Origin: Clavibacter capsici
Lineage (GTDB): Bacteria > Actinomycetota > Actinomycetes > Actinomycetales > Microbacteriaceae
Assembly: GCF_001280205.1 (NCBI RefSeq)
Contig: NZ_CP012573.1
Coordinates: 2,790,001 to 2,854,000, forward strand
Direction: 5' to 3'
Length of the DNA: 64,000 bases
Shown: positions 2,794-17,950 of the stretch, one piece after another
Layout: each line of letters starts with the position of its first letter
Numbering within the stretch: position 1 is the stretch's first letter
Position numbers and translations under genes: made by a program
Notes under the pieces: model-generated
Told to the model about the DNA's origin: nothing
Seen by the model: only the letters and a program-made list of their open reading frames with translations
Databases searched by the model: none

Positions 2794-2796
2794 CGT

Positions 2797-3255: not shown

Positions 3256-3457
3256 CAATTCCTCCTCATCGAAGTGCCCCGCACGGGCGGGATCACGAAG
3301 ATCCACCTGCCGATGTCGACGCCCGTGTCCTGCGCACGGCGAAACGAGCCGATCGCGCTGCCAGTCCTCGGATGCCGGACCCGGATGCGGGAAGCAGCCA
3401 GGCTAGGGCACCCGCCGACGCCCAGGTCGCCGGGTCCGCCGGCCCGCACCGCGCGCG

Positions 3458-3904
3458 TCAGCTCGCGGCGCGGCCGCCCTTCGGGACGAAGTCGGCCCGC
3501 TGGTTGCTCGTCTCCTCGAGGAGCCGGCGGACGGCCGCCTTCTCGATCAGCCAGCGTCCGCCGGGGCGCATGGCCGGGATCACGCCGTCGCGCAGCCAGC
3601 CGAGGATCGCCGGCCGGCTCTTCTGGAACAGCTCCATGAGGTGGCGGTGGGTGAGGTGGTCCGGGTACGCGTCGAGCGGATGCGGGTACGGCTCGTGCGG
3701 CGGCACCGGCACGGTCGACGTCGACTCGAGCCACTCGCGCACCTCGGAGCGGAACGCGATCCAGGAGTGCGAGATGCGGTGCCCGGGGATGGTGCCCTTC
3801 GCGAACCAGAGGCTCACGGTCGTCTGCCCGATGCCGAGCAGGCGTTGCAGGTCGGCGGAGCGCAGCGTCGCCGGGAGGTCGTCCCAGGGGTCTCGGTCTG
3901 CCAT
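3458..3904 (-). CDS. Tandem helix-turn-helix DNA-binding protein (148 aa)
   Basis: Starts MADRDPWDDLPATLRSADLQ. It contains two excisionase/MerR-like winged-helix modules in tandem: residues about 13-60 (LQRLLGIGQTTVSLWFAKGT...WIAFRSEVREWLE) and about 88-135 (LMELFQKSRPAILGWLRDG...GGRWLIEKAAVRRLLEE). Each has the 'recognition helix, then basic wing, then R..V..WL' layout of HTH_17 proteins. A CCGGAGC run precedes the ATG. It sits next to the secretion locus starting at 4006 and could regulate it or the zeta pair; the duplicated domain suggests binding to a direct repeat. Annotators often call such genes excisionase-like, but no integrase is visible nearby. Confidence 0.65.
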   Translation of the reverse strand: MADRDPWDDLPATLRSADLQRLLGIGQTTVSLWFAKGTIPGHRISHSWIAFRSEVREWLESTSTVPVPPHEPYPHPLDAYPDHLTHRHLMELFQKSRPAILGWLRDGVIPAMRPGGRWLIEKAAVRRLLEETSNQRADFVPKGGRAAS

Positions 3905-4005
3905 GCGCGCGTGCTGCTCCGGTCGGGTGCGGCGCGGGATGCTCGGATTTACCCGCCTGCGCAATTATCGCCTGGCGTCCGGGGTGCGCTGCAACCCGCG
4001 TGTCC

Positions 4006-5190
4006 TCACGCGGTCGCATGCCGGCACTCCCCGCCGCAGAGCGTCACGCCGAACACGCCGAAGAAGGCCTCCGGATCCACGTACCCGCTCACGGGCGCGC
4101 CCTGCGTCTGCGACTGCGGCAGCGCGCTGACCCGGGCGTCGGTGGATCCGCGCGCGTCGATCCGGATGTCGAGGTGGCAGCCCGTGGACGGCCCGTTCGA
4201 CCCCACCTTGCCGATCTCCTGGCCGGCGGTCACCGTGTCGCCGACGTGCACCTCCATGTCCGGCTCGTACATGTGCAGGTAGCTGATCGTGTAGCCCGCC
4301 GCCGACCGGATCGACATCGTGTAGCCGCCCGCCGTGGTGACGCTGCCGGCCTGGGCGGCGAGCACGGGCGACCCGCAGGAGTAGCCGGAGCGGCCTGACG
4401 CGGATCCGCTCTCCCGCGTCTGGTAGTCGTTCGCCGGGTGCCAGGAGGACGCGCCCGCCGTCGGGCTGACGCGCGGGCCGTAGCCGGAGGTCTGGTCGAA
4501 GGGCGCCTTCAGCGGCAGCACGGTACCGCCCGCCGAGCAGCCGCCGGCGGGCGCGGCGGTCGCGGGCGTGGCCGAGGGATCCGGCGTCCCGGTCGCGGCG
4601 GGGCTCGCCGCCGGCGCTGCCGCCGCGGCGCCGGACAGCTGCGCGACCACGTCCTCGGCCGGCTGCTGGAACCTGCGGTAGTGGTACGGGTCCTTGTTGA
4701 TCTGCACCTCGTGGATCGCGAGGGTCGGCTCGAGCGACTCCCACCCCTTCACGGTCTGCAGCCGGGTGAGGAACAGCTTCGCGCTCGTCGGCGGATCGAG
4801 CCGCTCCTGAACCGTGCCCCAGGACGACTGCTGCTGGAACAGGCCGATCGAGTCGGCGATGGATCCGTCGGGGTTCCGCGCGCCGTCGCCGTAGGAGATG
4901 TTCCGCAGCGACGACTCCCCCATCGCGGCCATGACCCCCAGCACCTGCGCCTGCCGGGACAGGCCGAGTCCGGCGGCGGCGTCCATGATCGCGGCGGCGT
5001 TGTCGAGCTGGTCCCCGGCGTAGCCGTCGACGGGCGTGCGCGGCCCGGTCGACGAGGACGCCGCGCCCTGCGTCGTGCAGGCGGACGCGTCGTCGCCGCC
5101 GAAGCCGAAGAGCACGAGGAAGACGATCATCCCCATCAGCGCGGCGGGCGTGCCGATGAGGACGAGGACCCCCTTGCCGCCGCCGTTCAC
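4006..5190 (-). CDS. VirB1-like cell-wall hydrolase: lysozyme-like plus M23 peptidase domains (394 aa)
   Basis: A GTG start overlapping the upstream gene's stop (GTGA), then an N-terminal membrane anchor (GVLVLIGTPAALMGMIVFLV) so the enzyme faces outward. Residues about 55-165 form a lytic/lysozyme-like domain (LGVMAAMGESSLRNI with the catalytic-type Glu, SIGLFQQQSSWGT). An Ala/Pro linker follows, then an M23/LytM metallopeptidase domain (GYGPRVSPTAGASSWHPAND, ISYLHMYEP, GCHLDIRID), the H...D, H..H zinc-ligand pattern being partly recognisable. Such two-domain hydrolases open peptidoglycan for Gram-positive conjugation machines (VirB1/TcpG-like role). It is last of a three-gene minus-strand operon divergent from the T4SS genes. 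Confidence 0.85.
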   Translation of the reverse strand: MNGGGKGVLVLIGTPAALMGMIVFLVLFGFGGDDASACTTQGAASSSTGPRTPVDGYAGDQLDNAAAIMDAAAGLGLSRQAQVLGVMAAMGESSLRNISYGDGARNPDGSIADSIGLFQQQSSWGTVQERLDPPTSAKLFLTRLQTVKGWESLEPTLAIHEVQINKDPYHYRRFQQPAEDVVAQLSGAAAAAPAASPAATGTPDPSATPATAAPAGGCSAGGTVLPLKAPFDQTSGYGPRVSPTAGASSWHPANDYQTRESGSASGRSGYSCGSPVLAAQAGSVTTAGGYTMSIRSAAGYTISYLHMYEPDMEVHVGDTVTAGQEIGKVGSNGPSTGCHLDIRIDARGSTDARVSALPQSQTQGAPVSGYVDPEAFFGVFGVTLCGGECRHATA

Positions 5191-5765
5191 TTGTCGCGGA
5201 CGGCCTGGATCTCGTCCGCCAGCCACGGAGCCGTGGGCGACGAGCGGACGAGCGCGACGTCGTAGTCGCCGTCGTCGGTGGGCACCCGCACGATGAGCGC
5301 GTACGCGGTGGGCGCGGGCATGATCGTGCCGGCGCCGGTGACCGCGTGGGCCGTGAGCCGCGACGGGATCGTGGGCACGAAGGCGACCGCGCCCCGCTGC
5401 GACAGGAGCGGCGTCATCTGCCGCTCCCACTCGGCCTCGGCGATGCCCGGCTGCGCGTAGGTGCGCATGACCCGGTCGGCTGCCGCGAGCGCCGACCCCT
5501 GCGACGCCGCGTCGGCCGTGGGCTCGGGCTCCGCGACCGCGCCGTCGTCCATCGCGCCCGGGGAGGAGGTGCCGGCGTCCGCGCCGCCGCCGTCGGTCGT
5601 GCCCGCGGCCCCCGCGGCGCCCGGCGAGGCGGCGGGATCCGCGGCGCTCCCGCCGTCGTGCACGGTGACGCTCGCGCAACCGGCGGTCCCGAGGGCGAGG
5701 CCCGCGGCGAGCGCCAGGGCACCCGCCCCGCGCACGACGGCCGTGCGTGCGACGGCCGCCCGCAT
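5187..5765 (-). CDS. Exported lipoprotein-like protein of the T4SS locus (192 aa)
   Basis: Starts MRAAVARTAVVRGAGALALA with a signal peptide ending LGTAGC, an imperfect lipobox, so it is probably a lipoprotein. A long Ala/Gly/Asp low-complexity linker (to about residue 85) leads to a C-terminal domain with ADRVMRTYAQPGIAEAEWERQ, FVPTIPSRLTAHAVTGAG and VRVPTDDGDYDVALVRS. This layout (anchor, linker, NTF2-like beta-rich domain) resembles VirB8/TcpC-type proteins but the match is loose. Start and stop overlap both neighbours (TGATG at 5763-5767 and GTGA at 5187-5190), so it is translated with the ParA-like ATPase and the cell-wall hydrolase. Confidence 0.65.
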   Translation of the reverse strand: MRAAVARTAVVRGAGALALAAGLALGTAGCASVTVHDGGSAADPAASPGAAGAAGTTDGGGADAGTSSPGAMDDGAVAEPEPTADAASQGSALAAADRVMRTYAQPGIAEAEWERQMTPLLSQRGAVAFVPTIPSRLTAHAVTGAGTIMPAPTAYALIVRVPTDDGDYDVALVRSSPTAPWLADEIQAVRDK

Positions 5766-7142
5766 CAGAGGCCCCGGGCCACGGCCGCCCCCGCGCGGAG
5801 CCAGGCCCGCTGCGTGGACGCCCGGAGCGCGCCGTAGTTGAGGACGTCCGCGCCGAGCGCCGGGTCGTAGGGCACCGTGACCACGTCCCGGGCGAGCGGC
5901 GCGAAGCCGTCGGAGATCTTGGCGAGCTCGGCGGGGGCCAGGTCGTGCTTGTGCGCGCTGACCACCACGACCGCGCGCTCCGCGAGGTCCGCGAAGTGCC
6001 CGCCGCGCTCCGCGAGCCCCTCGATGAGCAGCGCCGCCGACTCCGCCGCCTTCGCCTCGCCGATGGTGGGCACCACGATCTGGTCGGCGCGCTCGATGGC
6101 GCGCAGCCACATCGGGTCGGTCTCGTCGTTGCCCGAGTCGATGAGCACCAGGCGGTAGAACTTGGCGGCGACCGCGTGGATCAGGTCGACCGTGGTGTCG
6201 TCGAACCGCTGCTGGGTGGCGAGCACCTCGGGCTTGGAGCGGAGCACGTCGTAGCGGTCGCGGGTCTGGTGGTGGACGAAGTGCGCGAGGTCCGCGGACT
6301 GCGCGCCCGTGCCGAGGAGCCGGTCGACCTGCGGCAGGAGGTCGAGGATGCTCGCGTCGTGCGGCCCCTGCTCCGTGCTCCAGCCGAGGGTGCCGCGCGT
6401 CTGGTTGTTGTCCCAGGCGAGGACGCCCGCTCCGCCGTGGCGCGCGAACACCGAGGCGAGGCAGATCGTGGACATGGTCTTGCCCACGCCGCCCTTGCCG
6501 TTGACGACCGCGACCGTGCGGGGGCCGGGCCAGTGCTGGCTGACGAGACGGGTCCACTCGCGCTCGCGGCGCTCGGCCTCGGACGGCGACATGCGGATCC
6601 CGAGCCGCGTGAGGGTGCCGCGCATGCCCTGCGTGGCCGGCTCCTCCACCTCCTCGCGCGTGAGGAAGGACTGGCGGGCGGCGCGGCGGGTGAGCGGCGG
6701 ATACGCGGGCGCGGCCGGGGCCGGCGCGACCGGGGCGGGGCGGGGCGGCCGACGCGGCGGGGACGGCGGCCACCGGCGCGGCGGGGGCGCCGGGCGCCGC
6801 GGCACCGGCGTGCGAGGCCGCGGTCGGCGTCACGACCGCGGGCTCCGCGATCGCGTCCGTCCGGTCGAGCTCGCTGAGCGCCTCGACCGTGCCGTCCGGC
6901 CCGACGGCGAGCGCCTGGGATCCGAAGCGGTCGCGCGTCGTGAGGCGCACCGCCCGCTGCATCTGCTCGGCGATGCCGCGCACGCTCGTCACGATGCCGC
7001 GGCGGATGTCGTCCTCCGCCGCCTCCGCGAACGGCGTCGCGACGCCGTTGACCGTGAGCACCCCGGTGGCCCGGCCGCCGACGGTGGGCGTGATGGTGGC
7101 GTCGATGCGGGGGAAGGCGGGCACGGTCGGGGCGTCGGTCAT
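5765..7142 (-). pseudogene. ParA/MinD-like ATPase of the T4SS locus, apparent +1 frameshift
   Basis: The gene reads from MTDAPTVPAFPRIDATITPT at 7142 through a domain of about 110 residues (LTVNGVATPFAEAAEDDIRRG), an Ala/Pro linker, and then in another frame a MinD/ParA ATPase: deviant Walker A NGKGGVGKT, then VLAWDNNQTRG, LVLIDSGNDETDPMWLRAIE and PTIGEAKAAESAALLIEG. The change of frame falls in the linker, at three tandem CGGGG units around 6731-6748, and equals one extra base. Either the gene is broken, the repeat is a slippage switch, or it is a sequencing error. The ATPase part alone is open from 6805. Such ATPases may position or energise secretion proteins; here the partner is unknown. 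Confidence 0.7.
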
Positions 7143-7424
7143 CTGCGGCTCTCGGTGAAGGGGCGTCGGGCGGGTGGCGCGGGTGCGGCTGCCGGTGCCG
7201 GAGCTCGCCGGGCATCCCGTGTGGAGAGCCGGCCCGCGCGAGCGGTGGTGCCCGCCAGGATCGACGTCGGCGAGACAGTCTCATGGAAAATGCGAGCAGG
7301 GGCAAGCACTTGCGTCTGCGCAAGCACTTTGACAGCATCACCGTGCAGCGTCCTGTCGACATCCCCCACCCGGTGGATCACGCGTGAGGCGAGCACGAGA
7401 CCAGGCGGGTGGGATGGGCGGGGC
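7143..7424. promoter_or_regulatory. Divergent control region of the T4SS locus with a direct repeat
   Basis: This 282-base region separates the minus and plus arms and must hold both promoters. It contains the most AT-rich patch nearby and a direct repeat GCAAGCACTT at 7302-7311 and 7320-7329 (18-base period). A TTGACA, a plausible -35 box for the plus arm, overlaps the second repeat at 7329-7334, but no convincing -10 follows at the right distance. The repeat is a candidate operator; its binding protein is unknown. Confidence 0.4.
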
Positions 7425-8036
7425 ATGAGCGACAGCGGGAATCCATGGGTCGTCGGCGCGCCCGCGGTCGTCGACGCACCCGGATCCGACGCCCCGCCCC
7501 TCACCCGCCGTGAGCGCCTCCGCGGCCCACGCGCACCCCAGCCGGCCACCGTCGCCGCCCCGGCCGCGGCCGACCGCCTCCCCGTCCGGCGCACGGACGA
7601 GACCGCCGGTCTCTGGTGGGTCGGTGCCCACGGCGGCGCCGGCGAGACGACGCTCGCGCGCCTCGCCGCCGGATCCCGCGCCGCCGACCACGCCTGGCCC
7701 GCGCCTGCCGCCGGATCCCCCGCATCGCGCGTGGTCGTCGTCGCCCGCACCGACCACTCCGGCCTGCTGGCTGCGCAGCGGGTCGCCCGCGAGTGGGCGT
7801 CGGGCCAGGTCGCGGGCCTCGTCGAGCTGGTCGGCCTCGTGCTCGTGGCGGATGCGCCGGGCCGCCGCCCCAAGGAGCTGCGGCAGCTCGAGCAGCTGGT
7901 CGCCGGCGGGTACCCGCGCGCATGGACCCTGCCGTGGATCGACGCGTGGCGCCTCGGTCCCGCGGATCCCGCCGACATGGGCCGCGAGCACCAGCGGCTC
8001 CTCGCCGACCTGCAGCTCACCGCTTCCCCCCGCTAG
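7425..8036 (+). CDS. DUF6668-like, degenerate P-loop protein (203 aa)
   Basis: First gene of the plus arm, starting MSDSGNPWVVGAPAVVDAPG. After a Pro-rich leader, residues about 63-80 read GLWWVGAHGGAGETTLARLA, a P-loop-like motif in which the usual Lys is replaced by Glu, followed by VVVVARTDHSGLLAAQRVAREW, LVGLVLVADAPGRRPKELRQL and a C-terminal YPRAWTLPWIDAWRLG. This matches a family (DUF6668) found beside actinobacterial conjugation genes. With the Lys missing it may not hydrolyse ATP and could act as a structural or regulatory relative of the ParA-like protein encoded across the divergent region. Confidence 0.65.
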   Translation: MSDSGNPWVVGAPAVVDAPGSDAPPLTRRERLRGPRAPQPATVAAPAAADRLPVRRTDETAGLWWVGAHGGAGETTLARLAAGSRAADHAWPAPAAGSPASRVVVVARTDHSGLLAAQRVAREWASGQVAGLVELVGLVLVADAPGRRPKELRQLEQLVAGGYPRAWTLPWIDAWRLGPADPADMGREHQRLLADLQLTASPR

Positions 8037-8060
8037 CCCCCCCTTCCACGAGAGGCCCTC

Positions 8061-8384
8061 ATGTCCCCCACGCTCCTCGCGCTCGACGCCGTCCACCAGG
8101 CTTCCGCGCACATCCACCACGCCATGGACGCCGTCGCCATCGACGTGCCCAACGGCGACGCCCAGGCCCCCGCCGACTGGACCGAGAAGTTCGGCCGCAT
8201 CATCGGCATCGCCAAGTGGGTGCTGCTCCCGCTGGCGGTGCTCTCGCTCATCGCGACCGGCGCGATGCTGTTCCGCAACAACCGGCACGAGGGCGGCGAG
8301 ATCCAGGAGCGCCTCATCAAGATCGGCTTCGGCCTCTTCCTCGGCCTGGGCGCCGCGTCGCTCGTGAGCTTCGTCATCGCGTAG
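8061..8384 (+). CDS. VirB2/TrbC pilin-like membrane protein (107 aa)
   Basis: Starts MSPTLLALDAVHQASAHIHH. The second half holds two hydrophobic segments, about residues 50-70 (IAKWVLLPLAVLSLIATGAML) and 87-107 (IKIGFGLFLGLGAASLVSFV), joined by a short charged loop (FRNNRHEGGEIQERL). The size, topology and position before VirB8- and VirB6-like genes fit a VirB2/TrbC-type pilin or core membrane subunit. No classical signal peptide is visible, so the pilin call is mostly contextual. A GAGAGG ribosome binding site precedes the ATG. Confidence 0.6.
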   Translation: MSPTLLALDAVHQASAHIHHAMDAVAIDVPNGDAQAPADWTEKFGRIIGIAKWVLLPLAVLSLIATGAMLFRNNRHEGGEIQERLIKIGFGLFLGLGAASLVSFVIA

Positions 8385-8445
8385 CGCGACCGCCCGCTCC
8401 CCCGCCCCGCCTGCCCGCGCCGCCCGCTCCCTCGAGAGGATCCTC

Positions 8446-9207
8446 ATGAGCACCCCCGCCACGCCCGCCCGCACGCGCCCGCTCCTGATCGCGATCGTCG
8501 TGCTCCTCGCGCTGATCCTGGTGGGCGGCGGCATCGCGACGGCGACGGGCGCGTTCTCGGGCGGCGGGGCGCCGGTCGCGGTGCCGACGGGCGACGCGGT
8601 CGCTGCAACGGAGGCAGGCGCCTCGACGAGCGCACCTGCGCTCCCGGACGGCGCCGTATCCATCTGCGGCCTCCCGGGATACGAGGAGACGAGCTCGCTC
8701 GAAACGGCTCCGCAAGCGCATTGGGAGATCATCGGCACCACGGCGGTCCCCCAGGACACGACCACGACGGGACCGGGGAAGATCGAAGACGACGGCAGGT
8801 TCACGACCTGCTTCGCGCACACGGCTGCGGGTGCCCTCTTCGCGAGCATCAACTTCCTCGCCTCGGGCACCGACTCCCGCAACTACCCGCGCATCTACGA
8901 GCTCCTGGCCGACGGTGATGCCCGTGACCTGGCGAAGTCGGTCGGCCCGACCAGGAAGGCGCAGGACTCGTCGGGCGACTCCCGGGCGCAGGTGTCCGGA
9001 TTCAAGATCGACCGATACTCCGCGGACGAGGCCACGGTCGATCTCGCGCTCTCCTACTCGGGCAACCAACCGCAGCTGGTGAGCATGCCGGTCGTCCTCC
9101 GGTGGGAGCACGGCGACTGGAAGGTCGTCTTCGCGCAGGATGGACCGCCCATCAAGCCATCCGCGCTCACGAGCCTCGGGGGCTACATCCCGTTCGCGGG
9201 GGTCTGA
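8446..9207 (+). CDS. VirB8/TcpC-like bitopic protein, copy 1 (253 aa)
   Basis: Starts MSTPATPARTRPLLIAIVVL: a short cytoplasmic tail, one membrane helix (to VGGGIATATGAF), an Ala/Thr linker and an extracytoplasmic domain of about 190 residues beginning ICGLPGYEETSSLETAPQA. Conserved points shared with copy 2 are WxxxGTTAVP, GPGK, DGxFxTCFAHT, GALFA, QVSGFKI and the end SLGGYIPFAGV. The domain pattern (helix then beta strands ending VVLRWEHGDWKVV) is that of an NTF2-like VirB8/TcpC domain. VirB8 proteins nucleate the T4SS channel. The gene is followed 81 bases later by a tandem duplicate. Confidence 0.65.
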   Translation: MSTPATPARTRPLLIAIVVLLALILVGGGIATATGAFSGGGAPVAVPTGDAVAATEAGASTSAPALPDGAVSICGLPGYEETSSLETAPQAHWEIIGTTAVPQDTTTTGPGKIEDDGRFTTCFAHTAAGALFASINFLASGTDSRNYPRIYELLADGDARDLAKSVGPTRKAQDSSGDSRAQVSGFKIDRYSADEATVDLALSYSGNQPQLVSMPVVLRWEHGDWKVVFAQDGPPIKPSALTSLGGYIPFAGV

Positions 9208-9288
9208 CGCCATGGCCGACCGCACCAGCGAGATGCCCCTCACCGCGACCGTCCAGCAGCCCCTTCCCGCCCTCCCGAGAGGATCCTC

Positions 9289-10029
9289 ATGAGCACCCCC
9301 GCCACGCCCTTCCACAAGCGCCAGCTCTGGATCGTCATCGCGGCCTTCCTGGCCCTCGTGCTCGTGGGCGGCGGCATCGCGGCGGCGACGGGCGCGTTCT
9401 CGGGCGGCCGGACGTCGGTCGCGGCGCCGACGGTCGAAGCAACGCCGGCAGGCACCGGCGACGTGGCTACAGACGCCGGTTCCGCATGCGGCCTCACGGC
9501 TTACCAACCGTCAGGGACACTCGAGAGCGCGCCGTCGGCGACATGGCGACTCGTCGGAACCACGGCGGTGCCGACCTCACCAGAAGCCGGGCCGGGCAAG
9601 ACCAGCGAGGATGGGACGTTCTCAACCTGCTTCGCACACACGCCGACCGGCGCCCTCTTCGCGGCGATCAACTACTACGCCTCGGCGACGGACGGTCGGA
9701 ACACCTCGCGGCTCTACCAGCTCTTCGCGGCCGGACCGGCCAAAGACGAGCTGGCGAAGCAATCCGCCACAGCGACTCCTGATCCGGACGCCACCCGGGC
9801 GCAGGTCGCAGGTTTCAAGATCAATCAGTACTCCGCCGCGTCCGCCACGGTCGACGTCGCCACGAGGGTCCCCGACGGAGCGACGGGAGGATCGGAGCTG
9901 ATAAGCCTTCCCACCGTGCTCAATTGGGAGGACGGGGACTGGAAGATCGTCTACACGATGAGCGGCCCCCCGCTTCCGGCGGCATCGCTCTCCAGCCTCG
10001 GTGGATACGTCCCGTTCAGCGGCGTCTGA
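9289..10029 (+). CDS. VirB8/TcpC-like bitopic protein, copy 2 (246 aa)
   Basis: A paralogue of the gene at 8446, with the same layout: MSTPATPFHKRQLWIVIAAF, a membrane helix (LVLVGGGIAAATGAF), linker, then a domain with TWRLVGTTAVP, DGTFSTCFAHTPTGALFAAINY, AQVAGFKINQY and the end SLGGYVPFSGV. The bases around the two starts are nearly identical (CGAGAGGATCCTCATGAG in both), showing a tandem gene duplication, while the extracellular domains have diverged clearly. Both copies are intact, so each is probably used, perhaps as a hetero-oligomer. It ends three bases before the VirB6-like gene. Confidence 0.65.
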   Translation: MSTPATPFHKRQLWIVIAAFLALVLVGGGIAAATGAFSGGRTSVAAPTVEATPAGTGDVATDAGSACGLTAYQPSGTLESAPSATWRLVGTTAVPTSPEAGPGKTSEDGTFSTCFAHTPTGALFAAINYYASATDGRNTSRLYQLFAAGPAKDELAKQSATATPDPDATRAQVAGFKINQYSAASATVDVATRVPDGATGGSELISLPTVLNWEDGDWKIVYTMSGPPLPAASLSSLGGYVPFSGV

Positions 10030-10032
10030 CGC

Positions 10033-11631: not shown

Positions 11632-11643
11632 GGACACGGATCC

Positions 11644-13152
11644 ATGAGCGCCATCGAGGGCCGCGCCACCGCGCGCACGTACGGCAACTGGCGGAAGCCG
11701 CGCACCCGCGGCGTCGGCGGGCTCGGCATGTTCCCGACGATGTTCGGGTTCGCCGGGGCCGTGATGGTCATCATCGTCGCCACCAACAAGGGACTCGTCG
11801 CCGGGGTGATCACGGCGGCGGTGTTCGCCGGCGTGCTCGCGGCGGTCGCGGTCAAGGACAAGCACGGGGAGTCGGGGATGATCCGGATCATGAACCGCGC
11901 GGGCTGGCTGTTCGCCCGCAACCGCGGCGCGCACCTCTACCGCTCGGGGCCGCTGGGCTTCGCGGAGTGGGGCACGGCGCAGCTGCCGGGCCTCGCCGCG
12001 GGATCCCGCCTCACCGAGTGGAAGGACTCCTACGGCCGGCCGTTCGCGCTGATCGAGGTGCCCTCGACGAACGACTTCACGGTCGTGCTGGGCGCGGAGC
12101 CCGACGGATCCGCGCTCGTGGACCAGGAGCAGGTCGACATCTGGGTCGCCGAGTGGGGCTCCTGGCTCGAGGCGCTCGCCGACGAGCCCGGCCTCGTCGC
12201 CGCGTCCGTCACCCTCGAGACCGCGCCGGACACCGGCACGCGGCTGGCGTCGGAGGTGCTCGGGCGCATCGACGACCGCGGATCCGAGTTCTCCAAGAGC
12301 GTGCTGCGGAAGATCGTCGCCACCTACCCGGCCGGCGCCGCGACCATCAAGGCGTACGTCGCCATCACCTTCGCGGGCGCCGCGCGCTCCGGCACCGCCC
12401 GGCGGAGCCCCGAGGAGATGGGCCGCGAGCTCGCCTACCGGCTGCCCGGCCTCACCTCGGGCCTCTCCTCCACCGGCGCGGGCGCCGCCCGGCCGCTCAC
12501 GGCGCAGGACCTGTGCGAGGTGGTGCGGATCGCGTACGACCCCGCCGCCGCGATCCTCATCGACCAGGCGAACTCCGCCGGCCAGGCCACCGAGCTGTAC
12601 TGGCCGGAGGTCGGGCCGACCGCGCACCAGGCCGCGTGGGACTACTACCGCCACGACTCGGCGCTCTCGGTGTCGTGGATGATGTCGCAGGCGCCGCGCG
12701 GGAACGTGGGCGAGTCGATCCTGTCGCGGCTGCTCGCGCCGCACCGGCACATCGCCCGCAAGCGCGTCACGATGCTCTACCGGCCCATCGACCCGGCGCG
12801 CGCCGCCGCCATCGTCGAGGCCGACAAGCGCGACGCCGAGTTCCTCGTGGGCTCCACCCGGAACCCCACCGGCCGGTCGCGCAAGGACGTCATCGCGGCC
12901 TTCGCCAACGAGTCCGAGGAGTCGGGCGGCGCGGGGCTCGTCAACTTCGGCATGGTCGTGACCGCGACCGTGCAGGATCCGGCCACCATCGAGGACGCGC
13001 GCGCCGCCGTCGACAGCCTCTCCGCGCAGGCCCGCATCCGCCTCCGTGTCGTGCACGGCTCGCAGGACTCCGCGTTCGCCGCGGGCCTGCCGCTCGGCCT
13101 GGTGCTGCCGCGGCACCTGGCCATCCCCCACGACATCCGGGACCAGCTGTGA
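11644..13152 (+). CDS. SCO6880 family conjugation protein (502 aa)
   Basis: Starts MSAIEGRATARTYGNWRKPR. Two membrane helices lie at about residues 27-66 (MFGFAGAVMVIIVATNKGLVAG...AVFAGVLAAVAVKD), followed by a large cytoplasmic domain with RAGWLFARNRGAHLYRSGPL, VVLGAEPDGSALVDQEQVD, YWPEVGPTAHQAAWDYYRHD and RKRVTMLYRPIDPARAA. This is the recognised SCO6880 architecture of actinobacterial ICEs and plasmids, thought to correspond to a PrgI/VirB3-like membrane part fused to the N-terminal portion of a VirB4-like protein. The following gene supplies the ATPase, so together they appear to make a split VirB3-VirB4 unit. Confidence 0.85.
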   Translation: MSAIEGRATARTYGNWRKPRTRGVGGLGMFPTMFGFAGAVMVIIVATNKGLVAGVITAAVFAGVLAAVAVKDKHGESGMIRIMNRAGWLFARNRGAHLYRSGPLGFAEWGTAQLPGLAAGSRLTEWKDSYGRPFALIEVPSTNDFTVVLGAEPDGSALVDQEQVDIWVAEWGSWLEALADEPGLVAASVTLETAPDTGTRLASEVLGRIDDRGSEFSKSVLRKIVATYPAGAATIKAYVAITFAGAARSGTARRSPEEMGRELAYRLPGLTSGLSSTGAGAARPLTAQDLCEVVRIAYDPAAAILIDQANSAGQATELYWPEVGPTAHQAAWDYYRHDSALSVSWMMSQAPRGNVGESILSRLLAPHRHIARKRVTMLYRPIDPARAAAIVEADKRDAEFLVGSTRNPTGRSRKDVIAAFANESEESGGAGLVNFGMVVTATVQDPATIEDARAAVDSLSAQARIRLRVVHGSQDSAFAAGLPLGLVLPRHLAIPHDIRDQL

Positions 13153-13224
13153 TCCGCCGGGCCGCCGCCCACGCCGCCGCCCCCGCCGCCGCCCGCCCGG
13201 CACCCCACCCCGAGAGGAGCCGCC

Positions 13225-14910
13225 GTGCCCGCGCTTGACCAGGGCTCCCGCAAGGTCGCCACCCGCCGCACCCGCAAGCTGGCGGCCGACGCGGCCCGCG
13301 CGGCATCGGAGGCGGAGGCGCGCCCCGAGGCGCCGCGCCCGACGAGGGCCGAGCGCCGCGCCCTCCGCACGACCGCCCGCGCCGAGCGGCGCCCGTCCCC
13401 GCGCGGCTGGCTCGGCCGGGCCCGCGGCGAGACCGTGCTCGTGCAGCCGGCGCCCGAGTGGCGCGGCACCACCGTGCAGGTGTGCGGCCTGTGGCCGTAC
13501 GCCGTGGGATCCAGCAGCCCCATCAGCGGCGTGCCCCTCGGGCTGCACCTCGACACCGGCGCCACCGTCTGCGCCGACCCCATCTCCTGGTTCCAGTCGG
13601 GGATCATCTCGAACCCGTCGATCTTCGCCCTGGGCCTCCCCGGCCTCGGCAAGTCGACCCTCATCCGCAGGATGTGCGTCGGCGGCGACGGCATGGGCTA
13701 CCTGCCGCTCGTGCTCGGCGACCTCAAGCCCGACTACGTCGACATGGTGCACGCGCTCGACGGCCAGGTCATCACGCTCGGCCGCGGCCGCGGGCACCTC
13801 AACGTGCTGGATCCGGGCGGCGCGATCGAGGCGGCCGAGCAGCTGCGCGCCGCGGGCTTCGAGCAGGAGCGGCAGCGCCTCATCGCCGACGCGCACGGGC
13901 GCCGCAACACGATGGTCTCGGCGCTGCTCACCATCCTCCGCAAGCAGGCGCCCGACGACGTGGAGGAGTCGATCATCGACGCGGCCCTCCGCGTGCTCGA
14001 CGCGGAGTTCCCGGGCGTGCCCGTGCTCGCCGACCTGCTGCGCGTGATCCAGGACGCCCACCCCGCCGTGCGCGACGTGGCCGTCGACCGCGGCGACCTC
14101 GCGCGGTACCAGGAGATCACCCGCGGGCTCGAGGCGAGCCTCATCAGCCTCACGCGCGGCGGCCGGCTGGGCGAGATCTTCGCGCAGCAGACCGACGTGG
14201 CCATGCGGCACGACCGGCCGGTGGTCTACGACGTGTCGTCCATCGACGAGTCCGACACCGACCTCCAGGCCGCCGTGCTCCTCGCCTGCTGGTCGCAGGG
14301 CTTCGGCACGGTGAACGTCGCGACCGCGCTGGCCGACGCGGGGCTCCAGCCCCGCCGGCACTACCTCATCGTGATGGACGAGCTGTGGCGCGCGCTCCGC
14401 GTCGGCACGGGCATCGTCGACCGCATCGACTCGCTCACCCGCCTCAACCGGCAGCGGGGCGTGGGCCTCGCGATGATCACGCACACCATGTCCGACCTGC
14501 TGGCGCTCGCCGACGAGCAGGACCGGATGAAGGCGCGCGGCTTCGTCGAGCGCGCCGGCATGGTCGTCGCCGGCGGGCTGCCGCGCGCGGAGATGTCGAT
14601 GCTCACCCAGGCGGTCGCGCTGTCGCACTCGGAGCAGGACCTCGTCATGTCGTGGCAGAACCCGCCCGGCTGGTCGCCCGACCAGGAGCCGCCGGGGCGC
14701 GGGCGGTTCCTCATCAAGGTCGGCGGGCACCCGGGGATCCCCGTGCACGTCGAGCTCACCGAGGAGGAGCGGCACATCAACGACACGAACAAGGCCTGGC
14801 ACGCGACCGAGTCGTTCCCCGAGCCGGACGAGACGTCGGCCCGCCCGTCCGAGCAGCCCGCGAAGGCCGTCGACGAGGCGCTCGAGGCCGTGGAGGCGGG
14901 CGCCGCATGA
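13225..14910 (+). CDS. VirB4/TraC-like conjugation ATPase (561 aa)
   Basis: A GTG start with GAGAGGAG just upstream. After a basic N-terminal 70 residues, Walker A GLPGLGKST lies at about 137-145 and a Walker B-like HYLIVMDELW at about 380, followed by the RQRGVGLAMITHTMSDLLAL sensor region; ENPSIFALG-like NPSIFALGLPGLGKS is typical of the actinobacterial VirB4 group. The protein powers assembly or substrate transfer by the type IV secretion channel. Its stop overlaps the coupling-protein start (ATGA at 14907-14910). It lacks the N-terminal VirB4 domain, which the preceding SCO6880 protein likely provides. Confidence 0.88.
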   Translation: MPALDQGSRKVATRRTRKLAADAARAASEAEARPEAPRPTRAERRALRTTARAERRPSPRGWLGRARGETVLVQPAPEWRGTTVQVCGLWPYAVGSSSPISGVPLGLHLDTGATVCADPISWFQSGIISNPSIFALGLPGLGKSTLIRRMCVGGDGMGYLPLVLGDLKPDYVDMVHALDGQVITLGRGRGHLNVLDPGGAIEAAEQLRAAGFEQERQRLIADAHGRRNTMVSALLTILRKQAPDDVEESIIDAALRVLDAEFPGVPVLADLLRVIQDAHPAVRDVAVDRGDLARYQEITRGLEASLISLTRGGRLGEIFAQQTDVAMRHDRPVVYDVSSIDESDTDLQAAVLLACWSQGFGTVNVATALADAGLQPRRHYLIVMDELWRALRVGTGIVDRIDSLTRLNRQRGVGLAMITHTMSDLLALADEQDRMKARGFVERAGMVVAGGLPRAEMSMLTQAVALSHSEQDLVMSWQNPPGWSPDQEPPGRGRFLIKVGGHPGIPVHVELTEEERHINDTNKAWHATESFPEPDETSARPSEQPAKAVDEALEAVEAGAA

Positions 14911-16661
14911 GGGCCGAGCAGACGAACCGCCGCGCCGAGCCGGGGCGCGCGAACCCGGGCACGGTCATCGCGACCTGGGCGATCGGCATCGCGGCCGGGC
15001 TCCTCGCGTCGGCGTGGGCGGGGCTCGCCGCGGCGCACGCCCTCACCGGGGCGGGGGCGCCGCTGCCCGCGGATCCGCTCGCCGTCGCCATCGCGCTGAA
15101 GAAGGGCGAGGTCGCGTGGACCCCGCTCGCCGTGGTGATCGCCGTGGTCGTCGCCGCCCTGCTCACCGCCCTCGTGGTCGTCGTCGCCCGCGCGCTCCGC
15201 GGGCTCGGCCGCGGCCGCACGCGCGTCGACCGCAGCGCCCGCTACCTCGCGTCCGCGTCCGACCTCGGCGGCCTGCGCGAGCGCGCGGCCCTCGCGACGG
15301 CGGCGCGCCTCGGCGTCCCGGGCCGCCCGGGCGTGCCGCTCGGCCGCGACCTCCGCGGCGGCGGCATGCTCTACGCGTCGTGGGAGGACGTGTCCATCGG
15401 CATCGCCGGCCCGCGCGTGGGCAAGACCACCTCGCTCGTGGTGCCGGCGATCCTCGCGGCGCCCGGCGCGCTCGTCACCACGTCGAACAAGCCCGACGTC
15501 GTCCACGCCACCCGCGACCTCCGGGCGGGCGTCGGCACCACGTGGGTGTTCGACCCCCAGCAGGTCGCGGGCGAGGAGCCGACCTGGTGGTGGGATCCGC
15601 TCTCCTCCGTCGTCGACGACCAGTCCGCCGCGAAGCTCGCGGGCCACTTCGCCGCCGGATCCCGCGAGGCCGACGACCGCGGCGACGCCTTCTTCGACGC
15701 GGCCGGCAAGGACCTCCTCACGGGCCTGCTGCTCGCGGCGGCGCTCGACCGCCGTCCCATCACGGACGTGCTCGGCTGGCTCACGGATCCGGACGAGCGC
15801 GAGATGGTGGCCGTGCTCCGCCGGGGCGGCTACCCCCTCGTCGCCGACGACGTGGAGAGCGCGTCGCGCACCTCGCCCCGGCAGCGCGACGGCGTGTACG
15901 CGACCGCCCGCAAGATGGCGGCGTGCGTCCGCAGCTCGCGCGTGAACCGCTGGGTCACGCCGACGGGCGGCGACGCGGCCGCGGATCCCCGTCCCCGCCT
16001 CGACCCCGACGCCTTCGTGCGCGGCACCGACACCCTCTACTCGCTGTCGATGGAGGGCGAGGGCACGGCGGCTCCCCTGGTGACGGCGCTCACGGTCGCG
16101 ATCGTCGAGGCCGGCGAGCGCCTCGCGCGCACGCAGCCGGGCGGGCGCCTCGCGACGCCGCTCCTGTGCGTGCTCGACGAGGCCGCGAACGTGTGCCGGT
16201 GGAAGGACCTGCCCGACCTGTACTCGCACCTGGGCTCCCGTGGGATCCCGGTCATGTCGATCTTCCAGTCGTACGCGCAGGGCGTCGACGTGTTCGGCCG
16301 CGAGGGCATGCGCAAGCTCTTCAGCGCCGCGAACGAGGTCGTGTACCTCGGCGGCGTGAAGGAGGCGGAGTGGCTGCGGGAGCTGTCCGAGCTCATCGGC
16401 GACTACGACCACGAGACGGTCTCCAGCTCCACGACCCGCGGCGTCCGGTCCACCAGCGTGCAGAACGACCGGCGGCGGATCCTCGACACCTCCGAGCTCG
16501 CGGAGCTGCCCCGGGGCCGCGCCGTCCTGCTCGCGTCCGGGGTGCGCGCCTCCATGATCGCGACCGTGCCCTGGATGGACGGCCCCGAGGCGCCCGTGAT
16601 CCGCGCCTCCCTCGCCGCCGCCGACGCACGTGCCGTCTCCGGGTCGCGGGCGGCGTCGTGA
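14907..16661 (+). CDS. VirD4/TraG-type coupling ATPase (584 aa)
   Basis: Two N-terminal membrane helices (VIATWAIGIAAGLLASAWAG and PLAVVIAVVVAALLTALVVV) precede a cytoplasmic ATPase domain: Walker A GPRVGKTT at about 167-174, TTSNKPDVVHATRD, WWWDPLSSVVDD, Walker B LLCVLDEAANVC at about 420, then MSIFQSYAQGVDVFGREGMR, as in TraM-recognition/VirD4 proteins. Coupling proteins bring the DNA-relaxase complex or effector proteins to the T4SS channel. It overlaps both neighbours by four bases, so translation is coupled. No relaxase gene follows, which is unusual for a conjugation operon. Confidence 0.9.
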   Translation: MRAEQTNRRAEPGRANPGTVIATWAIGIAAGLLASAWAGLAAAHALTGAGAPLPADPLAVAIALKKGEVAWTPLAVVIAVVVAALLTALVVVVARALRGLGRGRTRVDRSARYLASASDLGGLRERAALATAARLGVPGRPGVPLGRDLRGGGMLYASWEDVSIGIAGPRVGKTTSLVVPAILAAPGALVTTSNKPDVVHATRDLRAGVGTTWVFDPQQVAGEEPTWWWDPLSSVVDDQSAAKLAGHFAAGSREADDRGDAFFDAAGKDLLTGLLLAAALDRRPITDVLGWLTDPDEREMVAVLRRGGYPLVADDVESASRTSPRQRDGVYATARKMAACVRSSRVNRWVTPTGGDAAADPRPRLDPDAFVRGTDTLYSLSMEGEGTAAPLVTALTVAIVEAGERLARTQPGGRLATPLLCVLDEAANVCRWKDLPDLYSHLGSRGIPVMSIFQSYAQGVDVFGREGMRKLFSAANEVVYLGGVKEAEWLRELSELIGDYDHETVSSSTTRGVRSTSVQNDRRRILDTSELAELPRGRAVLLASGVRASMIATVPWMDGPEAPVIRASLAAADARAVSGSRAAS

Positions 16662-17083
16662 CGGAGGCGTTCGGCTGGGGCGCCGACGTCGACGCCGTCG
16701 CGTCCGCGGATCCCGTCCACGCCGACCTCGACGCGTTCGTGCGCGGGTTCCTCGCGCCCGCCTACCGCCGGGAGGTGAGCCCGCGCGGCGAGAGCCGGTG
16801 GGATCCCGAGTGGTGGCGCCACCCCGAGGCCGTCGCGCGGCTCAAGGCGCTGTGGCTCGCGTGGGAGGCGCTGCGCCTCGAGGGGGCGACCGGCATGAGC
16901 GTGTGGTGGCGGGATCACGCCGACTACCACCTCGCCGTCCTCATGGGCCCGACCGGCCCGTTCGCGCGCACGTCGGCCACAACGGAGGCCGGGGAGCCGC
17001 TGCCGTGCGCGCCGCTGCCCGTCGGGTCCCTGCCCGGCGGGTCCCGGGATCCGCTCGACCCCGCGGCGGGAGCGGCCTCGTGA
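16658..17083 (+). CDS. DUF4913-like protein (141 aa)
   Basis: A GTG start overlapping the coupling-protein stop (GTGA). The protein begins VTEAFGWGADVDAVASADPV and carries DAFVRGFLAPAYRREV, RWDPEWWRHPEAVARLKALW and GMSVWWRDHADYHLAVLM, the Trp-rich pattern of DUF4913, a soluble family almost always located next to TraG/VirD4 genes in actinobacterial mobile elements. A role as an adaptor for the coupling protein is inferred from this linkage. The C-terminal 35 residues are Pro/Gly-rich. Confidence 0.75.
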   Translation: MTEAFGWGADVDAVASADPVHADLDAFVRGFLAPAYRREVSPRGESRWDPEWWRHPEAVARLKALWLAWEALRLEGATGMSVWWRDHADYHLAVLMGPTGPFARTSATTEAGEPLPCAPLPVGSLPGGSRDPLDPAAGAAS

Positions 17084-17931
17084 AGCGCGAGGTGCCGGCC
17101 TGGTTCCGGCTGCTGCTCTGCTGGCCGGCGCTGCTCGTGCTCGGCATAGGGCTGCTCGGGCTCCTCACCGTGATCGCGCGTCCTGAGCTGCTCACCCGAC
17201 CCGAGACCCTCATCCCCGGGCTCGTGCTCCTGCTCCTCTGCGTCTCGGCCGTGCGGACCCTGATCCGCGGCGCCCGTGTGCTCGCGGGCATGGTCCGCGG
17301 CGCCCGGCACGAGCTGGCCCGCCCGGCCCGCGAGGCCGCCGCAGCCGAGGACCTCGCCGCCCGGAGCGCCGCGGGGTGGGCGGAGGCGTGCCGCCTGCGG
17401 ACGTCGCTGCTGCGCGGTCAGGCCCCGCCCGGGATCGCCGTCTGGGACGTCGTCGCCGAGCCCGGCGAGGTGTTCCTCTACGACGTGCAGGCCGACTACG
17501 AGCGCTACTACGGGCAGGACGTCACCTACCAGCGCTCCAGCGGCTTCCTCGTCGGGAGCCCCGCCTTCGTGGTCGCCGGGATTGCGGTCGCGGCCATCGG
17601 CGACGCGTCCCGGCGGAGCGCGGCCGAGGCGCAGGCCGCCGCGCAGTGGCGCGAGCTGCAGCCCGTCCGCCTCGTGATCTCCGACCGCCGTCTCCTCTGC
17701 CAGGCCGGCGGGCACTGGCTCTCCTTCTGGTACGCGGGCATGACCGCGGTCTACCCGGAGGTGGCCGAGTGGGCGCTCGTCTGCCAGTTCCCGGACGTCG
17801 AGCCGCTGCGCCTCCGCGGCGTCGACGCGCCCCTCGCCGCCGTGATCACGGTGCTCGGCACGCAGGGCCTCGACGCGCTGCGCGACCACCCGAGCCTGCA
17901 GGCGCTGGGGCCGGTCCCGCCGGACGCGTGA
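17080..17931 (+). CDS. Membrane protein ending the T4SS operon (283 aa)
   Basis: A GTG start overlapping the DUF4913 stop (GTGA at 17080-17083). Residues 7-30 and 42-60 are membrane helices (WFRLLLCWPALLVLGIGLLG and IPGLVLLLLCVSAVRTLI), followed by a helical region and then a soluble domain: VWDVVAEPGEVFLYDVQADY, SSGFLVGSPAFVVAGIAVAA and RLVISDRRLLCQAGGHWLSF. The latter resembles the beta-rich 'short/PH-like' domains found in other actinobacterial proteins of unknown function. It is the last gene of the plus arm and converges with the phosphatase gene 19 bases later. Function unknown; linkage suggests a role in secretion or in protecting the cell envelope. Confidence 0.65.
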   Translation: MKREVPAWFRLLLCWPALLVLGIGLLGLLTVIARPELLTRPETLIPGLVLLLLCVSAVRTLIRGARVLAGMVRGARHELARPAREAAAAEDLAARSAAGWAEACRLRTSLLRGQAPPGIAVWDVVAEPGEVFLYDVQADYERYYGQDVTYQRSSGFLVGSPAFVVAGIAVAAIGDASRRSAAEAQAAAQWRELQPVRLVISDRRLLCQAGGHWLSFWYAGMTAVYPEVAEWALVCQFPDVEPLRLRGVDAPLAAVITVLGTQGLDALRDHPSLQALGPVPPDA

Positions 17932-17950
17932 GCGCCGGGCCGGCGACTGC

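What the first reader, a model, noticed from the sequence alone, without database searches (positions are those of the whole stretch)
4006..17931. Complete T4SS-like locus with no relaxase or integrase in sight
The sequence shows VirB1-, VirB2-, VirB8- (two copies), VirB6-, SCO6880-, VirB4- and VirD4-like genes in tight operons with four-base overlaps, plus DUF4913 and DUF6668 neighbours normally found in conjugative elements. Yet no relaxase, integrase, origin or attachment repeat is visible from 1 to 26,000, and ordinary chromosomal genes flank it. It may be a degraded element, a domesticated DNA-uptake or protein-export machine, or a mobilising helper for other plasmids.
Basis: partly seen in the sequence, partly recalled or inferred. 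Interest (0 to 1): 0.75.

Follow-up and report, generated by a model that had tools for sequence, protein, structure and literature searches.

The report
Plasmid-derived toxin injector in Clavibacter chromosome
A plant-associated bacterium carries in its chromosome, inherited for a long time, the DNA-transfer machine of an old plasmid without the plasmid's DNA-handling enzyme, together with kinase toxins whose tail end resembles that of the enzyme such machines normally export, so it may now deliver toxins instead of DNA.

Summary
The T4SS is real, but the unit is larger than stated: a 16.2-kb island, about 1768-17935, that also holds a zeta-toxin kinase and a partner gene (1768-3255). Nine of 18 Clavibacter genomes carry it at one chromosomal site, with synonymous divergence like that of the flanks: vertical inheritance. 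Seven genomes have an empty site (one with a deletion scar), one keeps a remnant, one is unresolved. SCO6880, ParA and VirB4 are under stronger purifying selection (dN/dS 0.04-0.11) than flanking genes (0.13-0.31). No carrier has a MOBP relaxase above cut-off, whereas all 22 other-genus relatives tested do, 19 on the T4SS contig. No end repeats; no integrase seen nearby. Several relatives are plasmids, some with the same toxin/partner pair.

All 15 Clavibacter zeta copies end in an Arg-rich tail (predicted disordered in the window's copy) that resembles C-termini of the cognate relaxases; seven distant zeta homologues do not. N-halves covary with the partner; tails do not. Best reading: a domesticated conjugation machine that exports toxins derived from a toxin-antitoxin pair, a Gram-positive parallel to Bartonella VbhT. 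Domestication is well supported; toxin export is inferred. Main rivals: in-trans helper for plasmids; addiction-held relic.

The parts
1768..2793 (-). zeta-toxin-family kinase (341 aa) with disordered Arg-rich C-terminal tail (residues 306-341); candidate exported toxin
   Evidence: PF06414 67.2 bits against 22.3; fold matches epsilon/zeta 1gvn, AvrRxo1, PezT; tail pLDDT below 50; tail resembles cognate relaxase C-termini
2797..3255 (-). partner gene (152 aa), directly upstream of zeta; candidate antitoxin/immunity protein
   Evidence: a partner beside 15 of 15 zeta copies, plus one orphan copy in G013; homologues in two other-genus genomes carry an HTH (PF01381 E 9.4e-5 and 2.6e-4, just under cut-off); the window copy itself has no family match
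3458..3904 (-). double HTH_17/excisionase-type DNA-binding protein, probable regulator
   Evidence: PF12728 65.6 bits; TIGR01764; 75% identical in the Curtobacterium relative
4006..5190 (-). VirB1-like cell-wall hydrolase with M23 peptidase domain
   Evidence: PF01551 52.4 bits; dN/dS 0.20
5187..5765 (-). lipoprotein-like protein (by sight of its N-terminus), unknown role
   Evidence: conserved in T4SS relatives; no Pfam family; dN/dS 0.38
5765..7142 (-). ParA/MinD-like ATPase; frameshifted in this genome inside a Pro-rich linker (6805-7142 in another frame)
   Evidence: AAA_31 39.8 bits; full-length 448-479 aa in the 8 other carriers; break located
7425..8036 (+). DUF6668 protein
   Evidence: PF20373 76.1 bits
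8061..8384 (+). VirB2/TrbC-like pilin
   Evidence: PF04956 E 0.0057, PF18895 E 0.021, both under cut-off; dN/dS 0.125
8446..9207 (+). membrane-anchored T4SS-linked protein, copy 1 ('VirB8-like' by position, unproven)
   Evidence: no Pfam match, no PDB match; conserved in T4SS relatives
9289..10029 (+). paralogue of the preceding, copy 2
   Evidence: 53% identical to copy 1
10135..11631 (+). VirB6/TrbL-like membrane protein
   Evidence: PF04610 27.1 bits against 25.9
11644..13152 (+). SCO6880-family T4SS protein
   Evidence: NF042935 557.9 bits against 60; dN/dS 0.041
13225..14910 (+). VirB4-like ATPase
   Evidence: NF045975/NF045971 weak matches; syntenic with T4SS relatives; dN/dS 0.107
14907..16661 (+). 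VirD4/TraG-like coupling protein
   Evidence: PF12696 109.3 bits, PF02534 64.5 bits; dN/dS 0.175
16658..17083 (+). DUF4913 protein
   Evidence: PF16259 119.4 bits
17080..17931 (+). orfR, membrane protein (by sight) at the right edge, unknown role
   Evidence: present in 9 of 9 carriers and G008, no match in the Curtobacterium locus; no family; its 3' end is fused to the zeta 3' end in the G017 scar
1768..17935 (.). whole island, bounded by DUF2087 (1259-1771) and SpoIIE phosphatase (17951-19204)
   Evidence: 7 empty sites join window ~1750-1767 to ~17934-17962

Best explanation
An ancestor of these Clavibacter acquired in its chromosome part of a plasmid: the SCO6880-type T4SS and the plasmid's toxin-antitoxin pair, without relaxase, replication and partition genes. 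The machine has since been inherited vertically under selection and lost several times. I infer that it now exports the zeta kinases: VirD4 recognises their disordered Arg/Gly/Asp tail, which resembles the C-terminus of the relaxases that this class of machine exports; the kinase acts in a neighbouring cell; the upstream partner protects the producer and its kin. Shown: island borders, single site, vertical inheritance, purifying selection, absence of a MOBP relaxase above cut-off, tail similarity, toxin-partner pairing. Inferred: recognition of the tail by VirD4, translocation, toxicity, protection, and bacteria as the target.
For: Same site and vertical inheritance: 9 of 18 genus genomes; island blocks 83-90% nucleotide identity, right flank 81-91%, left flank 91-95%; synonymous distances 0.15-0.36 in the T4SS genes against 0.16-0.30 in flank genes; T4SS tree sharing two well-supported pairs with the flank tree. 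Selection: dN/dS SCO6880 0.041, ParA 0.050, VirB4 0.107, VirD4 0.175, against flank genes 0.13-0.31; no stop codon in the aligned stretches of the island genes in 8 genomes. Orphaned: MOBP relaxase over cut-off in 0 of 9 carriers but in 22 of 22 other-genus relatives given to the search (22 of the 33 found), 19 on the T4SS contig. Zeta linkage: in the genus, zeta matches with E below 1e-12 lie only in the island (15 places); in 398 family genomes, 8 of 11 with this zeta subfamily have the T4SS, against 37 of 398 overall, p 3.6e-7; outside the genus 4 of 6, p 6e-4. Tail: a profile of the last 12 residues of 20 cognate relaxases puts 15 of 15 Clavibacter zetas above all 108 chromosomal background proteins, 4 of 6 other close-subfamily zetas above all and the other 2 below only 3; 7 of 7 distant zeta homologues look like background; reordered tails never reach the observed score, 0 of 2000. 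On five relaxase-bearing plasmids zeta ranks 2 of 60, 3 of 49, 1 of 45, 1 of 32 and 4 of 34 listed CDS, combined p 5e-4. Tail predicted disordered. Zeta residues 1-190 covary with the partner (r 0.595, 0 of 2000 permutations), residues 240-342 do not (r about 0).
Against: No translocation, toxicity or protection was or could be measured. Clavibacter zetas are related copies, not 15 independent events. Against plasmid CDS rather than chromosomal genes the window's own zeta tail is less exceptional: 6 of 244 score as high. The tail is not specific to this machine: seven MOBF relaxases of Clavibacter secondary contigs score 1.5-8.8 and some relaxases of other systems also beat the chromosomal background. 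Relaxase tails are not strongly charged (net -1 to +5 over 40 residues), unlike the zeta tails. I saw the tails before grouping the other-genus zetas. Covariation of the N-half with the partner could reflect mere adjacency of the two genes. No other protein in this genome ends convincingly in DRGR, so only one candidate substrate is known here. G275 has a tailed zeta (with a stop in frame) and no SCO6880, and G364 has an SCO6880 but an untailed zeta; Paenarthrobacter R1 has a related zeta on a plasmid with no listed T4SS. G008 lost most of the machine but kept a zeta pair. Several island genes are under no stronger constraint than flank genes (lipoprotein 0.38, orfR 0.32, DUF4913 0.25, VirB1 and VirB6 0.20). 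ParA is frameshifted in this genome. One well-supported pairing differs between T4SS and flank trees. Seven genomes do without the island.
Confidence: 0.52

Rival explanations
1. In-trans helper: the chromosomal T4SS is kept, or merely tolerated, because it moves plasmids that bring their own relaxase; the zeta pair is a leftover addiction module.
For: VirD4 is kept under constraint. MOBF relaxases on Clavibacter secondary contigs end in a similar RGDDGxER-like tail. G013 carries TrwC relaxases on contigs C8 and C9 but its only SCO6880 match at E 1e-10 is the chromosomal one.
Against: Four of nine carriers (G007, G011, G012, G015) have neither a TrwC nor a MOBP relaxase hit. In G000, G002, G004 and G010 the contigs with TrwC have an SCO6880 of their own, 26-27% identical. 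Selection on a host-borne helper should be weak, yet core dN/dS is very low. Other relaxase families were not tested, except Replic_Relax, whose control was silent.
Confidence: 0.2
2. Addiction-held relic: the zeta/partner toxin-antitoxin module makes loss of the island costly and the T4SS is a passenger, or serves some unrelated export or DNA release.
For: Zeta/partner looks like a toxin-antitoxin module: upstream partner with HTH homologues, zeta fold. Pair copies multiply and decay. G008 lost most of the machine but kept a zeta pair.
Against: Addiction would hold the DNA but not the coding sequence of the T4SS, whose core is under strong purifying selection. Losses of the whole island, pair included, are frequent.
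Confidence: 0.2
3. Ordinary integrative conjugative element with its relaxase or integrase overlooked.
For: Mating-pair apparatus and coupling protein.
Against: Borders from seven empty sites leave no room for more genes; no integrase seen; no end repeats; no MOBP or MOBF relaxase match on this chromosome; one site in 9 of 9 carriers.
Confidence: 0.03

Closest known systems
VbhT/VbhA and the Vbh T4SS of Bartonella schoenbuchensis plasmid pVbh (Harms et al. 2017, PMC5675462; abstract, section 10 and passages read)
   Same: A toxin-antitoxin toxin has a C-terminal region like that of the relaxase exported by the same T4SS. The same paper points to a PezTA module whose toxin has a BID domain on a Chelativorans plasmid (PezT is a zeta-type toxin; one search lists it among the fold matches).
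   Different: There the signal is a BID domain on a Gram-negative conjugative plasmid that still moves DNA; here it is a short disordered tail, in an actinobacterium, on a chromosomal machine without relaxase.
Bacteria-killing X-T4SS of Xanthomonas (review PMC6536674, 2019; section 15 whole and passages read)
   Same: Chromosomal T4SS with VirD4; toxin/immunity pairs with the immunity gene usually upstream; a zeta-toxin domain is in its list of effector domains. The review predicts that such machines should arise from plasmids carrying toxin-antitoxin pairs.
   Different: Another T4SS class, another signal, several effectors; killing is demonstrated there and not here.
SCO6880-type plasmids of Micrococcales (e.g. 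Rathayibacter festucae NZ_CP047181, Arthrobacter NC_019326, Brachybacterium NZ_CP086255)
   Same: Same T4SS gene set, MobC and relaxase, zeta/partner pair on the same plasmid.
   Different: The island has no relaxase, MobC or replication genes and sits at one chromosomal site.
Relaxase-less T4SS of Patescibacteria (PMC12102498; passages read)
   Same: Monoderm-type T4SS reported without relaxase in most clusters and thought co-opted for other functions.
   Different: Phylum-wide distribution; no toxin pair linked to it in the passages read.
Epsilon/zeta, PezAT and AvrRxo1:ORF2
   Same: Zeta kinase fold; these are known with a protein inhibitor.
   Different: The partner has no PDB fold match; the C-terminal tail resembles relaxase C-termini.

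Membership tests
Conjugative or integrative conjugative element | relaxase | tested here: not met
   no TrwC or PF03432 match on this chromosome; other MOB families not tested except Replic_Relax, whose control was silent
Conjugative or integrative conjugative element | integrase and attachment repeats | tested here: not met
   the genes between the empty-site borders match no integrase; end repeat only 9 bp; the whole genome was not searched for integrase families
Conjugative or integrative conjugative element | VirB4 plus coupling protein | tested here: met
   (VirB4 by weak family matches and synteny)
SCO6880-type actinobacterial T4SS | SCO6880 protein | tested here: met
   NF042935 557.9 bits against 60
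SCO6880-type actinobacterial T4SS | VirB8-like subunit | tested here: inconclusive
   no Pfam or PDB sequence match; placed by position only
Zeta-type toxin-antitoxin module | zeta kinase domain and fold | tested here: met
   P-loop and Asp101/Asp103 invariant in the alignment of 15 sequences, 13 of the 15 Clavibacter copies and two others; that these are the catalytic residues is recalled
Zeta-type toxin-antitoxin module | neutralising antitoxin | not testable with these tools
   a partner beside every zeta copy; neutralisation not measured
VbhT-like T4SS-exported toxin | C-terminus shared with the cognate relaxase | tested here: met
   profile scores and within-plasmid ranks; short motif only, and relaxases of other systems share part of it
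VbhT-like T4SS-exported toxin | BID domain | tested here: not met
   no such Pfam match at E up to 1
Bacteria-killing T4SS | toxin/immunity pairs at the locus | tested here: met
   1-3 zeta copies each with a partner, plus one orphan partner; that partner is an immunity protein is inferred
Bacteria-killing T4SS | contact-dependent killing | not testable with these tools
   needs an experiment

The most novel reading that the evidence does not exclude
A dedicated toxin-delivery T4SS in a Gram-positive bacterium, evolved from a conjugative plasmid by loss of the relaxase and retention of a toxin-antitoxin pair, with a short C-terminal R-G/D-rich code shared by MOBP relaxases, MOBF relaxases and zeta toxins (and by an unknown protein just downstream of the relaxase on some plasmids) as the general export signal of SCO6880-type machines.
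Probability: 0.38. Interest if true: 0.86.

Novelty: new variant of a known kind. Interest (0 to 1): 0.72.

Why it matters
The 2019 review of bacteria-killing T4SSs (PMC6536674, section 15 read) argued that a plasmid whose toxin is exported with its DNA could lose DNA transfer and become a toxin injector. This island has the anatomy expected of that step, in a phylum for which the listings of my library searches showed no such report (one search listed 15 of 33 papers, the papers themselves were mostly not opened), and with close plasmid relatives that still have the relaxase for comparison. It also offers a testable export signal for actinobacterial T4SSs, from which cargo could be predicted by sequence.

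Tried and rejected
Zeta tail elsewhere in the genus as a mark of further effectors: 14 places at E up to 0.01, each in an island zeta gene. DRGR-stop pattern in this genome: 7 matches against 5 for the reversed control; apart from zeta none is a convincing gene. Partner fold against PDB: nothing at E 0.001. Sequence search of PDB for zeta, VirD4, VirB4 (two matches that look like chance), the VirB8-like pair: nothing useful; the zeta profile hit mostly AAA P-loops, 1gvn among them. Replic_Relax search uninformative because its control was silent. PADLOC gave only weak matches. The genome-contig scan gave only three loci. The gene caller trained on Clavibacter worked poorly on lower-GC relatives, so open reading frames were used instead. 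Rows dropped: relaxase L114 (cut by contig end) from the profile; control L143 (wrong ORF picked) from interpretation; G003 from site counts (contig end); Curtobacterium and G008 from the dN/dS means. The dN/dS figures are for the best local alignment per genome; for the VirB8-like pair they mix paralogues, so its apparent speed (0.47-0.51) is not relied on. Of 54 plasmid records with a zeta match (30 listed) six were fetched, picked for size and rank. CDS lists are PLSDB's and incomplete, and two records were cut at 50,000 bases. The 62 proteins of the charge comparison include the zeta itself. On checking, the G008 remnant was moved to the side of the addiction rival, so I lowered the best explanation from 0.55 to 0.52, raised that rival from 0.17 to 0.20 and lowered the novel case from 0.40 to 0.38.


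Full report
What is there. The window is bases 2,790,001-2,854,000 of a 3.06-Mb contig in a 3.24-Mb genome of three contigs. Gene calling and family searches confirm a T4SS with SCO6880, VirB4-like, VirD4-like, VirB6/TrbL, pilin-like and cell-wall hydrolase genes, DUF6668, DUF4913 and a ParA-like ATPase. 'VirB8' is not confirmed: the two paralogues match no Pfam family and no solved structure by sequence.

The borders. A search of 18 genus genomes with the SCO6880 protein found the chromosomal copy in 9, at 98-100% identity, and diverged copies at 26-27% on secondary contigs of five genomes. All nine chromosomal copies lie between the same neighbours. Of the nine non-carriers, seven have an empty site in which the DUF2087 gene is followed, after 2-234 bases, by the SpoIIE-type gene; one (G008) keeps both ends but has lost the middle; one (G003) ends at a contig edge. 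The G017 empty site holds the 3' end of zeta fused to the 3' end of orfR, so there the island was present and deleted. If the root had the island and G008 and G017 count as presence, six further losses are needed; unordered parsimony gives 5 changes, or 6 with the scar, and does not settle gain against loss at the root.

Age and selection. Island blocks are 83-90% identical to the window, the right flank 81-91%, the left flank 91-95% (some blocks span island and right flank). The T4SS gene tree and the flank tree share the pairs G012+G013 and G002+G008 with good support; they differ on G004, which pairs with G010 in the first (0.978) and with G007 in the second (0.973), so some exchange at the site cannot be excluded; several other nodes are weak. 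Mean synonymous distance to the window is 0.15-0.36 for the T4SS genes other than the VirB8-like pair and 0.16-0.30 for flanking genes. dN/dS is 0.041 for SCO6880, 0.050 for ParA, 0.107 for VirB4, 0.123 for DUF6668, 0.125 for VirB2, 0.175 for VirD4, 0.17 for the HTH protein, 0.20 for VirB1 and VirB6, 0.25 for DUF4913, 0.32 for orfR and 0.38 for the lipoprotein; flank genes give 0.13-0.31. So the core stands out, the accessory genes do not. The VirB8-like pair gives 0.47-0.51, but those comparisons mix paralogues. In this genome ParA is frameshifted in a proline-rich linker; in the eight others it is 448-479 aa.

What was lost. I searched 40 genomes (18 of the genus and 22 of the 33 other-genus genomes with this T4SS) for relaxases. 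PF03432 (MOBP) is over cut-off in 22 of 22 other-genus genomes, on the T4SS contig in 19 (not G102, G149, G261), and in 0 of 9 Clavibacter carriers; one non-carrier (G009) has it, and this genome has one sub-threshold fragment on contig C3. TrwC (MOBF) occurs in 7 of 18 genus genomes, on secondary contigs in each. Four carriers have neither. The relatives' T4SS lies on contigs from about 20 kb to over 1 Mb, so some are clearly plasmid-sized and some may be chromosomal. The Curtobacterium relative (85% SCO6880) has a PF03432 relaxase and MobC about 2 kb after DUF4913. Plasmid records show the same layout: mobC, relaxase, further genes, then DUF4913 to SCO6880 in reverse. In PLSDB 386 of 72,556 plasmids match the SCO6880 protein and 54 match the zeta protein.

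The toxin pair. The nine carriers and G008 hold 15 zeta copies, each with a partner, and one orphan partner. Some copies are decayed: one in G011 has an in-frame stop, one in G013 an internal deletion that keeps the tail. Zeta matches with E below 1e-12 occur in the genus only in this island; weaker P-loop matches occur in every genome. In 398 family genomes, 18 match the window zeta; 11 of these belong to its close subfamily (at least 44% identity), of which 8 have the T4SS by the strict search (p 3.6e-7), on the same contig; four of these share the Clavibacter island, and outside the genus it is 4 of 6 (p 6e-4). Of the other three, G379 has a more distant SCO6880 on another contig, G275 has none, and G008 has the remnant. 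The model of zeta matches epsilon/zeta (1gvn, E 9.6e-10), AvrRxo1 and PezT, with TM-scores by query of only 0.44-0.52, and residues 306-341 are predicted disordered. The partner is modelled as a helical protein without a PDB match; its homologues in two other-genus genomes have an HTH slightly below the Pfam cut-off, as expected for an antitoxin.

The tail. Zeta C-termini (last 40 residues) carry +6 to +8 net charge in 14 copies and +4 in the truncated one, against a mean of -0.2 for 62 window proteins, zeta included. The relaxases of the relatives end in similar Arg/Gly/Asp stretches, though their last 40 residues are only weakly charged (net -1 to +5). A profile of the last 12 residues, built from 20 of 21 relaxases, scored 18 of 20 relaxases above all 108 chromosomal proteins when each was left out; 15 of 15 Clavibacter zetas above all; 4 of 6 other close-subfamily zetas above all, 2 below three; and 7 of 7 distant zeta homologues within the background. 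I had seen these tails before making the groups. Shuffling residue order within the tails removes the signal (0 of 2000 for both zeta groups), so it is not composition alone. Controls were mixed: seven MOBF relaxases of Clavibacter secondary contigs, five of which also carry a distant SCO6880, score 1.5-8.8; eight other MOBF relaxases score -0.5 to -11.9, two of them above the best chromosomal protein; of three other MOBP relaxases one scores 8.2 and two -0.95, also above it. The tail thus looks like a feature of relaxases more widely, strongest in these systems. On five plasmids with a MOBP-type relaxase (one of them, FW306-05-C, with no SCO6880 gene listed), zeta ranks 2 of 60, 3 of 49, 1 of 45, 1 of 32 and 4 of 34 listed CDS, the relaxase 1, 1, 10, 2 and 1; on two plasmids the gene directly after the relaxase ranks third. 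On a plasmid without T4SS or relaxase among its listed genes zeta ranks 14 of 35. Combined p for the five is 5e-4. Against the pooled 244 plasmid CDS the window zeta is equalled or exceeded by 6.

Mosaic structure. Zeta residues 1-190 covary with the partner (r 0.595, 0 of 2000 permutations, 15 pairs); residues 190-342 weakly (r 0.22, 42 of 2000), and 240-342 not at all. A shared tail with variable, partner-matched heads is the pattern of polymorphic toxins; simple adjacency of head and partner gene could also produce it.

Reading. Domestication of a plasmid T4SS is well supported. That it exports the zeta toxins is the most economical account of why machine and toxins stay together, why VirD4 is kept and why the tails look as they do, but it rests on sequence alone. 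Precedent exists: VbhT, and a PezTA toxin with a BID domain, on conjugative plasmids (PMC5675462, abstract and section 10 read), and the prediction in PMC6536674 (section 15 read) that such plasmids can turn into bacteria-killing machines. [quoted passage not shown] Searches for Clavibacter or Microbacteriaceae with T4SS or zeta toxin showed no report of this island in their listings; one listed paper, on Rathayibacter toxicus, was checked by passages and does not describe it. Most subscription papers are not in that library.

Noticed in passing
window 5765-7142: ParA-like gene is split by a frameshift in a GC-rich proline linker in this genome only among the nine carriers; real mutation or sequencing error not decided.
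   Followed up: partly
L156:34919-36274 and L160:8139-9440: The gene directly after the relaxase on two plasmids (451 and 433 aa, unknown) ends in the same Arg/Gly/Asp tail and ranks third among listed CDS: a possible third exported protein.
   Followed up: no
G013 contigs C8 and C9 (L134 for C9): MOBF relaxase genes in a carrier whose only SCO6880 match is the chromosomal one: candidates for mobilisation in trans by the island.
   Followed up: no
G002 locus, 7443-8051 and 11599-12210 (in L033): Two transposase-like fragments with the same start flank the zeta/partner array in G002, as if the array could move as a unit; judged by eye, not searched.
   Followed up: no
window 8446-10029: The VirB8-like gene occurs as one or two divergent copies (two in 3 of 9 carriers) and is the most variable part of the machine.
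   Followed up: partly
L074 (G102 contig C28): A copy of this T4SS class in another genus beside chromosomal-looking genes, apparently lacking the left half of the locus.
   Followed up: no
G000 contig C3 near 84670 (L148): Sub-threshold MOBP relaxase fragment on a contig that also carries a TrwC relaxase and its own SCO6880.
   Followed up: no
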